DNA from: Fomitopsis serialis
Lineage: Eukaryota > Basidiomycota > Agaricomycetes > Polyporales > Fomitopsidaceae
Reading direction: 5' to 3'
Length of the DNA stretch: 64,000 nt
Assembly (NCBI RefSeq): GCF_022376445.1
Contig: NW_025955095.1
Coordinates: forward strand, 51,355 to 115,354
In this document: positions 44,321-56,479 of the stretch, one piece after another
How positions within the stretch are numbered: position 1 is the stretch's first letter
How the letters are laid out: each line of letters starts with the position of its first letter
Made by a program: the position numbers and the translations under genes
Notes under the pieces: model-generated
Database searches by the model: none
What the model was told of the DNA's origin: nothing
What the model saw: only the letters and a program-made list of their open reading frames with translations

Positions 44321-45988
44321 TGATGAGCCCTTAGCTCACCTACCCACCGAAAACGCCATTTACGGTCGATACAACGTTACACTAAGTCAGAACGGTCGAC
44401 GCACTGTCCGTCCGTTCGAGGGAACCGCCCGATGTTCGAAGCTCAAGCGTCAATGTTCGGAACCCTTAGTGGCAGAGGCAAGCGGTTTAGAAGTGTCGCT
44501 ACATTGGTAGGACTCCGGGGCAAGTACATGGCTACGTCAAACTAACTAGTGACGGCCTCGGCAACTCTCGTATCTATGTCCTCGACCTCCACACCCATGA
44601 CCACCACCCCTACCCCTACGAACAGACGGACCGGTGTCGGAGCCACGATCAGTGTTGACGCGCTCGAGTAGGCTTTCGAGCAACCCGACGAGGGTGCCGT
44701 GCGTGCGGCGCTGGTCGACTGCGATGTTGTGAATCGCTCGACCCATGGACTCGAGGTTGTCGGGCAGCTGGCGAAAGTCGGACAGGATCAACGACTCGCG
44801 CTGATACTGCGGGTTCGCGAGGGGACGACGCTCGGCCTGGTTGACTTGTTCGAGCAGTACCAAGGTCTCGGACCACGCGATCGTAGGGTAGGGCGAACCT
44901 AGGATGTCTCCCTGGTTGCCATCGCGGTGAAAGACCTCGTCGAGGTAACGCATCAACTCGTCGATCTCGGGGAATGACCTAGGAGCAGGAAGCGTATCGT
45001 TCGCCAGCAGGATGGCCCGGCTGCGGGACTCGAACAAGAATCGCTGTTCGAAGGTTGGTTCGATGGTTCGAACGATAGTCTAAGTTCGGAGGCACGTACG
45101 ATCATCCAACGGACTCCGTGGGCCCAAGCCAGCCACTCTCCGGGACTGTTGGCATCGTATCGCGGCTCGACAAGTCCCTCGGTCTTGAGGACCTCTAGGA
45201 GGCGATAGTAGCGGGCAGCATACGCTTCGGAAGTTGGGTCGAGGTGCGGCATGTTCGCGTAAGTCAGGCGAACTCCTGCAGCTGTCTCATATCTACGAGG
45301 ACTGTCACCGGCTCCGGTTATGACCTTCGCCGTTCGGGGACGGTCGCCCGTTATGCGGAACCTGCGGAAGGCCGAGTTGGATTCTCTCATGTGTTAGTAG
45401 GTCCGGGTCGAGTGTTGTGACATTCTCCGATTGGCTGCTTTCCTTATCACTTTCATTCATCATGTCTTGTATTTCTCTTGGCTCTCTTGGTCTTCGGACC
45501 GTATTTTCCTGTATATACTCTGGGACTTGTTCCCTTCGAATCTTAGAGACCCCCTTACCCTCTCAATCTCACCTCGCACCGGCGAGGTTCGTCAGTCAGC
45601 CAGTACGTTCGAAGTCAGCAAGTTCGCCAGTCAGTCAGTACGTTCGAAGTCAGTCAGTCAGTTCGCCAGTACGTTCGCCAGCTCGTAGTTGCCCCGAGAG
45701 GCTCTACACTTCTTCTCCTGCCGTCGCTCGCCTTCCTTGTCACCGTTCGTTCGACACGTCTGTCGAAACTCCCCCTCCTACCTTCGAGGCTTAGCCCTCG
45801 TCTTCGAACAGTCTTCGACATCTTCGAAGCTCTCCCACGTCGTTCGGAGTCTTGTCCGTCCTCCTCCTTCTTACCTAGACCACTGTACAGTCCCCCGTAC
45901 ATCTCATAGACGCAGAGGCCTCGCATACCACTGCTCGACCTCACGGTTGGGTTTTTGTGTGGCTTTTGTGTTCTTTTCGGTCGCGTCA
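44321..45988 (+). repeat. 5' LTR of the gypsy element (1668 bp)
   Basis: Begins TGATGAGCCC and ends GGTCGCGTCA (TG...CA). A TATA-type box, GTATATACTC, lies at 45511-45520. About 70 bp further on there is a tandem GTCAGTCAG / CGTTCGAAGTCAG array (45590-45685), probably in the transcribed leader. The antisense strand carries a spliced gene (44546-45390). 1.67 kb is long for a fungal LTR, and the extra length is accounted for by that gene. Confidence 0.88.
44546..45390 (-). CDS. antisense spliced gene in the 5' LTR, 262 aa, RGG-like tail
   Basis: Exon 1 is 45390-45100 (97 codons from ATG); the intron is 45099-45044 (56 nt, GTACGT...ACAG); exon 2 is 45043-44546 (165 codons plus TAG). The junction is phase 0 and reads WMI|RFLFESRSRAILLAND without a break. 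The N-terminal half is mixed (ITGDRPRTAKVITGAGDSPR, then a helix LRLLEVLKTEGLVEPRYD-like). The C-terminal half is helical (PEIDELMRYLDEVFHRD; NLESMGRAIHNIAVDQRRTH; LVGLLESLLERV) and ends with a Gly/Arg-rich tail (RRGRGGGHGCGGRGHR) that suggests nucleic-acid binding. The other LTR has the same gene; 16 of 18 coding differences between them are silent. No family recognised. Confidence 0.75.
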
Positions 45989-45991
45989 TCT

Positions 45992-46009
45992 TGGAGCCCA
46001 CCGCGAGGG
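45992..46009 (+). other. primer binding site of the gypsy element
   Basis: TGGAGCCCACCGCGAGGG, three bases after the LTR end, starts with TGG and is complementary to a tRNA 3' end ending CCA. It is in the standard place for minus-strand priming. Confidence 0.65.
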
Positions 46010-46017
46010 GGATATAG

Positions 46018-54435: not shown

Positions 54436-54802
54436 GGAGAGACGGACGAAGTCAAGAGCGAGCGGAGCGGGGGATCAAGCGAAATTCGGCTGGAGACCCC
54501 GCCGCTATATGTGTGCTCGAGCTTTGTGGGTCCACCTACCGCATTCGAGACGCTGAAACAACGGGGATCATCCCCATCAGAACCAGTCCAAAACGGGAAG
54601 GAAGCGCTCACCTCCCGTCCAATGGGATTAATTCTTCGGATCAACGTGATCGAAGCGCGTCCTGCCGTTCGCTAATCGCTTCTCAAGTGCTCGCCATTGG
54701 ACAAGACCTTCGGACGGCCTGGCGCGGAAGTATCTCGATGATCGCGGACGCAAATCAAGCGCCGGCGTGTTCGAGCCGACCGAGGACGGTCTGGATCTCA
54801 GT
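54436..54802. other. region between antisense gene start and 3' polypurine tract
   Basis: 367 bp with no gene. On the minus strand it lies directly upstream of the second antisense gene, so it should contain that gene's promoter or leader. On the plus strand it is the 3' untranslated part of the retrotransposon. Confidence 0.45.
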
Positions 54803-54812
54803 AAGGGGGAGA
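54803..54812 (+). other. 3' polypurine tract of the gypsy element
   Basis: AAGGGGGAGA directly before the 3' LTR (TGATGAGCCC). Standard primer for plus-strand synthesis; it confirms the sense orientation. Confidence 0.8.
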
Positions 54813-56479
54813 TGATGAGCCCTTAGCTCACCTACCACCGAAAACGCGATTTACGGTCGGTACGACAGTATACTAAGTCCGTATGGTCGACGCACTGTCC
54901 GTCCGTTCGAGGGAACCGTCCAATGTTCGAAGCTCAAGCGTCAATGTTCGGAACCCTTAGTGGCAGAGGCAAGCGGTTTAGAAGCGTCGCTACATTGGTA
55001 GGACTCCGGGGCAAGTACATGGCTACGTCAAACTAACTAGTGACGACCTCGGCAACTCTCGTATCTATGGCCTCGACCTCCACACCCATGACCACCACCC
55101 CTACCCCTACGAACAGACGGGCCGGTGTCGGAACCACGGTCAGTGTTGACGCGCTCGAGCAGGCTTTCGAGCAACCCAACGAGGGTACCGTGCGTGCGGC
55201 GCTGGTCGACTGCGATGTTGTGGATCGCTCGACCCATGGACTCGAGGTTGTCGGGCAGCTGGCGAAAGTCGGACAGGATCAACGACTCGCGCTGATACTG
55301 CGGGTTCGCGAGGGGACGACGCTCGGCCTGGTTGACTTGTTCGAGCAGTACCAAGGTCTCGGACCACGCGATCGTAGGGTAGGGCGAACCTAGGATGTCT
55401 CCCTGGTTGCCATCGCGGTGAAAGACCTCGTCGAGGTAACGCATCAACTCGTCGATCTCGGGGAACGACCTAGGAGCAGGAAGCGTATCGTTCGCCAGCA
55501 GTATGGCCCGGCTGCGGGACTCGAACAAGAATCGCTGTTCGAAGGTCGGTTCGATGGTTCGAACGATAGTCTAAGTTCGGAGGCACGTACGATCATCCAA
55601 CGGACTCCGTGAGCCCAAGCCAGCCACTCTCCGGGACTGTTGGCATCGTATCGCGGCTCGACAAGTCCCTCGGTCTTGAGGACCTCTAGGAGGCGGTAGT
55701 AGCGGGCAGCATACGCTTCGGAAGTTGGGTCGAGGTGCGGCATGTTCGTGTAAGTCAGGCGAACTCCTGCCGCTGTCTCATATCTTCGAGGACTGTCACC
55801 GGCTCCGGTTATGACCTTCGCCGTTCGGGGGCGGTCGCCCGTTATGCGGAACCTGCGGAAGGCCGAGTTGGATGCTCTCATGTGTTAGTAGGTCCGGGTC
55901 GAGCGTTGTAACATTCTCCGATTGGCTACTTTCCTTATCACTTTCATTCATCATTTCTTGTATTTCTCTTGGCTCTCTTGGTCTTCGGACCGTATTTTCC
56001 TGTATATACTCTGGGACTTGTTCCCTTCGAATCTCAGAGACCCCCTTACCCTCTCAATCTCACCTCGCACCGGCGAGGTTCGTCAGTCAGCCAGTACGTT
56101 CGAAGTCAGCAAATTCGCCGGTCAGTCAGTACGTTCGAAGTCAGTCAGTCAGTTCGCCAGTACGTTCGCCAGCTCGTAGTTGCCCCGAGAGGCTCTACAC
56201 TTATTCTCCTGCCGTCGCTCGCCTTCCTTGTCGCCGCTCGTTCGACACGTCTGTCGAAACTCCCCCTCCTACCTTCGAGGCTTAGCCCTCGTCTTCGAAC
56301 AGTCTTCGACATCTTCGAAGCTCTCCCACGTCGTTCGGAGTCTTGTCCGTCCTCCTCCTTCTTACCTAGACCACTGTACAGTCCCCCGTACATCTCATAG
56401 ACGCAGAGGCCTCGCATACCACTGCTCGACCTCACGGTTGGGTTTTTGTGTGGCTTTTGTGTTCTTTTCGGTCGCGTCA
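54813..56479 (+). repeat. 3' LTR of the gypsy element (1667 bp)
   Basis: Same ends as the 5' LTR. Differences are uneven: 12 substitutions and one indel in the first 225 bp, 18 in the antisense coding sequence, 1 in its intron, about 10 in the last 598 bp. Directly followed by LINE sequence, without a target duplication shared with the left flank. Confidence 0.88.
55037..55881 (-). CDS. antisense spliced gene in the 3' LTR, 262 aa
   Basis: Same structure as the 5' LTR copy: exon 1 55881-55591, intron 55590-55535, exon 2 55534-55037, all splice signals kept. Exon 2 protein is identical to the other copy despite 11 nucleotide differences. Exon 1 differs by 7 nucleotides, 2 of them changing residues (Glu to Ala at position 3, Ala to Thr near position 46). 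This copy lies upstream of, and in the same direction as, the second antisense gene, so one antisense transcript could in principle cover both. Confidence 0.75.

What the first reader, a model, noticed from the sequence alone, without database searches (positions are those of the whole stretch)
44546..55881. A spliced antisense gene hidden in both LTRs, with coding differences almost all silent
Each 1.67-kb LTR encodes, on the strand opposite to gag-pol, a two-exon 262-aa gene with intact splice sites and an RGG-like tail (44546-45390 and 55037-55881). Comparing the two copies base by base I find 18 coding differences: 11 in exon 2, all synonymous, and 7 in exon 1, of which 5 are synonymous. 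Neutral LTR drift should give about one silent change in three or four. Meanwhile gag-pol of the same element is riddled with frameshifts. Seen: the gene structure and the silent bias. Inferred: the protein has been under purifying selection and serves the element, for example as an RNA-binding regulator or an antisense Gag-like factor. LTRs that carry genes are rare outside a few viruses.
Basis: partly seen in the sequence, partly recalled or inferred. Interest (0 to 1): 0.93.

Follow-up and report, generated by a model that had tools for sequence, protein, structure and literature searches.

The report
Spliced antisense gene inside retrotransposon LTRs
A mobile element of a wood-decay fungus carries, inside its repeated ends and on the opposite strand to its main genes, a small intron-containing gene that evolution keeps intact in several related element families, which suggests the element needs the protein.

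Summary
The gene is real by sequence evidence. Both LTRs encode, antisense to gag-pol, a two-exon gene with a 56-nt GT-AG intron. The conserved protein probably starts at codon 47 (216 aa, not 262): codons 1-46 evolve neutrally and relatives lack them. Of 69 same-family copies, 43 are intact; silent changes are in excess (omega 0.29; 0.14 for variants in four or more copies). The window LTRs differ by 13 silent and 0 replacing changes in the conserved part. With 41 differences and mismatched target duplications they do not look like one insertion's pair, so selection acted earlier.

In a fourth lineage the gene-bearing U3 was exchanged on an identical backbone. Relatives are annotated in Daedalea, Fomitopsis and Rhodofomes. 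The element is saturated with TTCGAA (4.3/kb, flanks 0.3/kb); B and C lack it.

Best reading: a divergently transcribed accessory gene for an element-specific regulator. Expression and function are inferred. The RGG-like tail is not shared, so a family-wide RNA-binding role is unsupported.

The parts
44321..45988 (+). 5' LTR of the Ty3-like element (TG...CA, 1668 bp)
   Evidence: 97.5% direct repeat; ends defined against 46 copies
54813..56479 (+). 3' LTR (1667 bp)
   Evidence: start shared with relatives and D. quercina annotations; codons 47-97 omega 0.25 over all variants
45044..45099 (-). intron (GT...AG, 56 nt)
   Evidence: GT..AG in 67 of 69 copies, AT..AG in 2; same codon position in families B, C, D
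44546..45043 (-). exon 2, 5' LTR copy
   Evidence: omega 0.94, singletons 1.30; absent from homologues
55591..55743 (-). exon 1 of the conserved gene, 3' LTR copy
55535..55590 (-). intron, 3' LTR copy
55037..55534 (-). exon 2, 3' LTR copy
45512..45517 (+). TATATA, possible sense core promoter; antisense start codon 260 bp away, divergent (second copy at 56003-56008)
   Evidence: function inferred; the same pattern was not found in the B and C LTRs
45992..46009 (+). presumed primer-binding site TGGAGCCCACCGCGAGGG, also next to the LTR in families B and C
   Evidence: the matching tRNA was not sought
54802..54812 (+). polypurine tract before the 3' LTR
   Evidence: GGGGGAGA precedes 14 of 46 LTR copies
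47693..48961 (+). gag-pol fragment with aspartyl protease
   Evidence: Pfam PF13650 above its cut-off, PF13975 just below
50316..50831 (+). pol fragment with RNase H-like domain
   Evidence: Pfam PF17919
44321..56479 (.). element-wide saturation with the palindrome TTCGAA (52 copies)

Best explanation
Each LTR carries in its U3 a complete accessory gene, read divergently from the gag-pol promoter, spliced once, and encoding a 216-249-aa mostly helical protein with a long C-terminal helix and a variable tail. It belongs to the element, not the host. It has been kept by purifying selection through many rounds of transposition and is shared by several related Ty3-like LTR families of brown-rot polypores. 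Because it lies wholly inside the LTR, a full element carries two copies and a solo LTR one, so the protein can be supplied in trans. I think it most likely acts in the nucleus on its own LTRs and element DNA, as a family-specific regulator or anti-silencing factor, with the gene and its U3 travelling together as a module. Shown by sequence: gene structure, selection, presence in the LTRs of three families, one cassette exchange, family-specific motif enrichment. Inferred: transcription, translation, nuclear and DNA-directed action.
For: Purifying selection: in 69 copies codons 47-262 show 137 silent and 94 replacing variants (neutral silent fraction 0.30, omega 0.29, p 2e-20). Variants in two or more copies give omega 0.20, in four or more 0.14, singletons 0.53. 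Other frames of the exon-2 stretch: 1.20-2.83, and 0.49 in one sense frame that has 8 stops. Without that set, six pairs among B lineages give dN/dS 0.06-0.13 with dS 0.39-1.0, B against C 0.19-0.21. Splicing: 41 of 52 B, C and D loci matched the two-exon pattern; the intron is at the same codon, GT..AG in 39 and AT..AG in 2. Location: the gene sits in an LTR in A, B (L069/L070, 1576-bp repeat, 99.6%) and C (L071/L072, 1558 bp, 98.7%). Solo LTRs: 8 of 9 solo LTRs with matching 4-bp flanks keep the gene intact. Module: D (L073) and C (L071) are identical in ten consecutive 100-bp bins covering the LTR right part and the start of the internal region, then drop to about 0.6 and below between about 200 and 100 bp upstream of the antisense ATG. 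Motifs: TTCGAA 52 in 12.2 kb of A against 16 in 51.8 kb of flank, in several codon phases; B and C internal DNA enriched for CCTCCG (25 against 3.9, 15 against 2.8 expected).
Against: No RNA data: transcription and splicing are untested. No Pfam or PDB-sequence match for the A protein, no fold match for the model, so no DNA-binding domain is recognised; all eight proteins checked are net acidic (A -2, D -8, B and C -10 to -12). D has a protein 39% identical to C yet is rich in the same CCTCCG motif, so motif and protein do not change strictly together. In the B gag frame all 5 CCTCCG sites lie in one phase and strand, so codon or peptide bias may explain them there; C/T-rich words such as CTCCTC are also raised in the flanks (75 against 27.5). 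Motif sites in LTR copies are not significantly more conserved (common variants 2 of 98 against 109 of 1570 sites, p = 0.06). dN/dS of A or D against the other families is weaker (0.32-0.45) at near-saturated dS. No TATA match in the B and C LTRs.
Confidence: 0.5

Rival explanations
1. The gene is a real element-encoded accessory gene, but its protein acts on particles or RNA (copy-number control through Gag, nucleocapsid-like or export function) rather than on element DNA.
For: Selection and location are equally compatible. Family A has a constrained RGG-like tail (omega 0.16 all variants, 0.11 in two or more copies). The predicted fold is helical with a long C-terminal helix, which also suits assembly interference.
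Against: The RGG-like tail is not shared; B, C and D tails are acidic. No similarity of the A protein to Gag in Pfam and no match of the model among solved and viral folds.
Confidence: 0.3
2. Antisense transcription, not the protein, is what matters: the U3 makes a spliced antisense RNA that tunes silencing, and the open frame is incidental.
For: Antisense retroelement transcripts without coding function are described (micropia, TART; IAP antisense promoters) in PMC7264820.
Against: Protein-level constraint: omega 0.14-0.29 in A, dN/dS 0.06-0.13 among B lineages; A and B keep about 35% protein identity although their aligned codons differ at about half of the bases.
Confidence: 0.05
3. The gene is a host gene captured or domesticated, or a remnant of another transposon lodged in the LTR.
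For: Some copies are solo LTRs with an intact gene, so single loci could have been co-opted. Several weak rows (for example C701, C158) were not fetched or placed.
Against: The copies fetched fall into multi-copy groups; LTR context was shown for A, B and C, at the same place and orientation. Every named homologue is a hypothetical or uncharacterized protein.
Confidence: 0.1
4. Artefact: the silent bias comes from choosing the best-matching copies, or from mutation bias at CpG sites.
For: 46 of the 69 copies came from score-ranked searches, which favour copies with few replacing changes. Adding 23 more raised omega from 0.21 to 0.29.
Against: The 69 are all but 5 of the 74 A-type exon-1 places that I count, and omega stays far below 1. 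Neutral expectation used a CpG-aware spectrum from the non-gene LTR. Codons 1-46 of the same copies behave neutrally (0.94). Between-family values do not depend on this set.
Confidence: 0.03

Closest known systems
Antisense additional ORFs of LTR retrotransposons (maize Grande gene23, rice RIRE2, Silene Retand / TRP28, Botrytis Boty)
   Same: Extra gene antisense to gag-pol, present in most copies, in part shared between families, protein of unknown function, suggested regulatory role (PMC7264820, parts 1 and 2 of 3 read; PMC11963269, passages read).
   Different: Those lie in the internal region between pol and the 3' LTR; this one is wholly inside the LTR, so it is doubled in every element and survives in solo LTRs. 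It has an intron, and the A protein has no TRP28 or other Pfam match.
Retroviral antisense proteins (HTLV-1 HBZ, HTLV-2 APH-2)
   Same: Antisense accessory proteins (passages of PMC11963269) from an antisense promoter in the 3' LTR (PMC7264820); splicing of HBZ is recalled.
   Different: The HBZ reading frame extends into the internal region (recalled); here the whole gene lies in the LTR. No bZIP or other Pfam domain found in the A protein.
MMTV superantigen (Sag)
   Same: A protein-coding gene located in the LTR (recalled; only a search listing seen).
   Different: Sag is in the sense orientation in the 3' LTR of an animal retrovirus (recalled); no sequence relation was tested.
VANC anti-silencing proteins of Arabidopsis VANDAL transposons
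   Same: Works like, if the bold reading holds: element-encoded protein in a multi-family system, with short family-specific motifs dense in the element (PMC5735166, passages read).
   Different: VANDALs are DNA transposons (recalled) and the VANC21 motif sits mainly in noncoding regions, often tandem repeats; here the motif is spread through coding and noncoding DNA. Binding and demethylation are untested; no homology was found (no Pfam match).

Membership tests
LTR retrotransposon, Ty3-like | direct LTRs with TG...CA ends, PBS and polypurine tract | tested here: met
   PBS by position and TGG start, tRNA not identified
LTR retrotransposon, Ty3-like | target-site duplication | tested here: met
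   matching 4-bp flanks (NCGN) at 9 of 10 solo LTRs with both ends and at two 5'/3' pairs, C179 and C112; not met for the window element itself (CCGC/GCGT)
LTR retrotransposon, Ty3-like | protease, RT, RNase H and integrase in Ty3 order | tested here: inconclusive
   protease and RNase H-like domains by Pfam; no Pfam match for the presumed RT and integrase fragments; the presumed RT fragment has 89 matches in the genome
Antisense aORF-3R of LTR retrotransposons | open frame antisense to gag-pol in most copies | tested here: met
   43 of 69 copies intact
Antisense aORF-3R of LTR retrotransposons | located between pol and the 3' LTR | tested here: not met
   the whole gene lies inside the LTR in families A, B and C
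Antisense aORF-3R of LTR retrotransposons | TRP28 (PF04195) domain, Retand type | tested here: not met
   A protein only: no Pfam family at E <= 10
VANC-type anti-silencing system | short motif dense in the element and rare outside | tested here: met
   TTCGAA 4.28/kb against 0.31/kb in the window's flanks; not counted genome-wide
VANC-type anti-silencing system | related proteins go with different motifs | tested here: inconclusive
   A differs from B, C and D in motif, but D and C share CCTCCG in spite of 39% protein identity, and in B gag the motif lies in one codon phase
VANC-type anti-silencing system | protein binds the motif and removes methylation from the element | not testable with these tools
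   needs binding and methylation assays
HBZ-type antisense bZIP regulators | bZIP domain (recalled as defining) | tested here: not met
   A protein: no Pfam match; the model of P0009 shows only a long C-terminal helix

The most novel reading that the evidence does not exclude
The U3 gene and the element's own short palindromic motif form a self-recognition module: each LTR family encodes, inside its LTR, a protein that recognises a motif with which the family has saturated its whole length, so that the element protects or activates its own copies and not its competitors', and families switch specificity by exchanging U3 cassettes. It would be a retrotransposon counterpart of the VANC system, with coding sequence itself bent to carry the motif.
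Probability: 0.18. Interest if true: 0.93.

Novelty: new variant of a known kind. Interest (0 to 1): 0.82.

Why it matters
Antisense accessory genes of LTR retrotransposons are known but their roles are not, and the ones described in the papers read sit in the internal region. A conserved intron-containing gene wholly inside the LTR means that solo LTRs, usually treated as inert scars or promoters, can remain protein-coding loci. With several divergent families that keep intact copies and an element-wide motif, this system gives a direct way to test whether such genes are self-specific regulators.

Tried and rejected
Fold identity: one AlphaFold model (17 sequences, first P0009 of Fomitopsis schrenkii; mean pLDDT 73, pTM 0.54) searched against PDB and viral structures gave no match at E <= 0.001. 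The best rows (E 0.3-0.4) and the TetR rows are weak and I read nothing into them.

RNA-binding by the RGG tail: rejected as a family trait.

A second unrelated U3 gene: C469 (L148 and L147) has an A-type LTR from just before the TATA box onward at 97% over the 187 bp held, but a different upstream sequence with a 339-aa antisense frame. That frame resembles parts of frames of about 400 to over 2000 aa elsewhere, so I take it as a piece of another element and not as a second LTR gene.

Codon bias as the cause of the TTCGA density in A: TCGA cores fall in all three codon phases in 3 of 4 ORFs examined (2 of 2 sites in one phase in the fourth). For CCTCCG in B gag it is not excluded: 5 of 5 sites in one phase.

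Motif conservation among LTR copies: not significant.

Dropped row: one search also compared L022 with L036 on C322 (4 silent, 0 replacing in codons 47-262; 1 and 1 in codons 1-46). They are in opposite orientation and not one element, so I left them out of the pair count.

Literature: searches showed in their listings no paper on a gene wholly inside an LTR in antisense. Apart from three papers I opened none of those listed, and the library holds open-licence PMC papers only.

Not done: LTRs of the third RT group (51-53% identity; C160, C460, C789, C121, C457), which had no row for the gene in the capped lists. The species, the tRNA of the primer-binding site, and a copy count of the motif outside the window were not determined.
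Full report
WHERE IT IS. The window is C41:51355-115354 of a 66.2-Mb assembly in 806 contigs. The nearest named proteins are hypothetical proteins of Daedalea quercina, the best three 90-92% identical over 66-74% of the query, so the host is presumably a brown-rot polypore close to it; the species was not established. 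The element at 44321-56479 has LTRs of 1668 and 1667 bp, a presumed primer-binding site, a polypurine tract, and protease and RNase H-like domains; the presumed RT and integrase fragments gave no Pfam match. Its gag-pol is broken in all sense frames. Family A copies have matching 4-bp flanks of the form NCGN: at 9 of 10 solo LTRs with both ends, and in two 5'/3' pairs on C179 and C112 (my reading of 46 rows: 10 5', 14 3', 10 solo, 12 truncated).

THE GENE. The true start is probably codon 47. D. quercina annotations start there and join the exons at the same place (P0001, P0002). Families B, C and D start with MPADAPPNPS, MPSDAPPNPS or MSSSMPLNPL at the same point. Codons 1-46 have omega 0.94 over all variants and 1.30 in singletons, although 0.35 for the 15 variants in four or more copies.

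SELECTION. I gathered 69 copies of family A, 46 loci with LTR flanks and 23 gene-only stretches, of 74 A-type exon-1 places that I count (the list itself is capped at 150 scored candidates of 163). 43 of 69 are intact from M47 to the stop with GT-AG. Of the 26 broken ones, 10 lack a large part of exon 2 in the stretch held, some because I fetched only the matched part. Against a mutation spectrum taken from the 823 non-gene LTR sites of 46 copies (CpG-aware), codons 47-262 give S=137, N=94, neutral silent fraction 0.30, omega 0.29, p=1.8e-20. Shared by two or more copies: S=99, N=47, omega 0.20. Four or more: S=53, N=18, omega 0.14. Singletons: S=38, N=47, omega 0.53. In the exon-2 stretch the other two antisense frames give 1.33 and 2.60, the sense frames 1.20, 0.49 (8 stops) and 2.83. 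Some copies may be alleles or duplicates of one insertion (L033 and L034 are identical over 1356 bp), which does not affect counts of distinct variants except the sharing classes. The 46-copy set, ranked by search score, gave 0.21.

WHY THE TWO WINDOW LTRs DIFFER SILENTLY. LTRs of one insertion start identical, and later changes should be neutral. The window pair has unlike flanks (CCGC, GCGT) and 41 differences in 1667. The 3' LTR groups with L034, L003 and L007 to the exclusion of the 5' LTR (support 0.92-0.98); the place of the 5' LTR in the tree is poorly supported, but it is closer to L003 (22 differences) and L022 (28) than to its partner. The pair L006/L004 with matching GCGG differs at 1 of 1668; L018/L068 with matching TCGT at 21 of 1663. 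The three pairs or putative pairs examined (these two and L047/L084, whose flanks were not checked) give together 1 silent and 3 replacing changes in codons 47-262, too few to test but not silent-biased. So the window element is probably chimeric or recombined, and its silent differences record selection on active lineages before insertion.

OTHER FAMILIES. In one search I count 69 further places at 35-57% identity over the aligned part of exon 1; exon-2 searches show corresponding places (capped lists). At C290 two copies lie in a 1576-bp, 99.6% identical repeat about 11.9 kb apart; at C163 in a 1558-bp, 98.7% repeat about 10.8 kb apart. BLASTN at its default (megablast) setting found nothing between L069 (B) and L071 (C) or between L069 and L001 (A); A against C was not tested. 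These repeats have TG...CA ends and the same sequence TGGAGCCCACCGCGAGGGGG next to the LTR as A. The antisense ATG is at position 932 of 1668 (A), 939 of 1575 (B) and 997 of 1554 (C). Of 52 loci examined for B, C and D, 41 matched a strict two-exon pattern: introns of 48-65 nt (one decayed copy 42) at the same codon, GT..AG in 39 and AT..AG in 2. A looser pattern, which demanded the AG, gave 43 loci and 41 coding sequences with a start. B1 against B3: protein 86%, dS 0.98, dN/dS 0.08; B against C 0.19-0.21; A or D against the others 0.32-0.45 at dS near saturation. RT fragments group likewise: A mostly 96-100% in long matches, those on contigs of B, C and D roughly 57-72%, a third group 51-53% without a gene row.

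CASSETTE EXCHANGE. D (L073) and C (L071) are identical in ten consecutive 100-bp bins (L071 1401-2400) covering the right part of the LTR and the start of the internal region. The bin 1301-1400 is 0.92 and those further left 0.64 or less, through the gene and the rest of U3; the antisense start is at about 1197. The gene with its U3 has thus been exchanged recently as a unit, with the joint between the antisense start and the right part of the LTR.

DISTRIBUTION. Named homologues are hypothetical or uncharacterized proteins of D. quercina, Fomitopsis schrenkii and Rhodofomes roseus; the rest are unnamed, mostly metagenomic (6, 16 and 48 hits). The F. schrenkii protein P0009 is 51-54% identical to B and C but 34% to A, so the lineages appear older than the split of these genera, unless elements moved between them. 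Whether the Fomitopsis and Rhodofomes genes lie in LTRs could not be seen. The search sees only relatives sharing short exact words, and searches scored only the 7997 best candidates.

PROTEIN. The A protein has no Pfam family at E <= 10 and no PDB sequence at E <= 1; B, C and D were not scanned. The model (P0009) is helical with a long C-terminal helix at residues 141-200 and has no fold match at E <= 0.001. Tails: RGG-like and basic in A (+5 in the last 40 residues), acidic in B, C and D (-7 to -9).

MOTIF. TTCGA on either strand stands at about 14-15 per kb in LTR and internal region of A against 2.4 in the window's flanks; in 2-kb bins the rise coincides with the element. TTCGAA: 52 in the element, 16 in 51.8 kb of flank; no other 6-base palindrome is comparable. 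TCGA cores fall in several codon phases of the gag-pol ORFs. The B and C DNA examined (LTR plus 2.4 and 1.7 kb internal) has no TTCGAA, but CCTCCG is raised in the internal DNA (25 against 3.9 and 15 against 2.8 expected) and CCTTCC in the B LTR (15 against 1.9); D cassettes have 7-14 CCTCCG per kb. Against co-evolution: D and C share the motif although their proteins are 39% identical; in B gag all 5 CCTCCG sites are in one codon phase; related C/T-rich words are raised in the flanks too; and motif sites are not significantly more conserved among LTR copies. For this reason I put the bold reading at 0.18.

VERDICT. The gene and its selection are established by sequence; transcription, translation and function are inferred. 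It belongs with antisense accessory genes of LTR retrotransposons but fails the location criterion of the described ones, hence a new variant. Literature: PMC7264820 parts 1 and 2 of 3 read, PMC5735166 and PMC11963269 passages, others only as listings.

Noticed in passing
window 44321-56479: The whole element is saturated with the palindrome TTCGAA (52 copies, 14-fold over the window's flanks); the B and C DNA examined has none and is rich in CCTCCG instead.
   Followed up: partly
window 57413-60445: LINE-like open frame with endonuclease and reverse transcriptase domains downstream of the 3' LTR; another open frame (56446-58122, no Pfam match) runs out of the LTR end.
   Followed up: no
L147, L148 (G000:C469:9850-11600): A-type LTR from just before the TATA box onward joined to a foreign upstream sequence that resembles long ORFs elsewhere. 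Eleven contigs holding the LTR-end/PBS junction have no row for the gene or the RT, possibly non-autonomous relatives.
   Followed up: partly
G000 C160, C460, C789, C121, C457: Related RT group (51-53%), two with pol frames of 1477 and 1552 aa, and no row for the antisense gene in the capped lists; a possible natural control.
   Followed up: no
L071 1401-2400 and L073: LTR right part and start of the internal region identical over 1 kb while U3 with its gene is unlike: recent U3 cassette exchange.
   Followed up: yes
LTR copies L001-L068: Flanking duplications of family A are of the form NCGN (4 bp with central CG) at 9 of 10 solo LTRs.
   Followed up: partly
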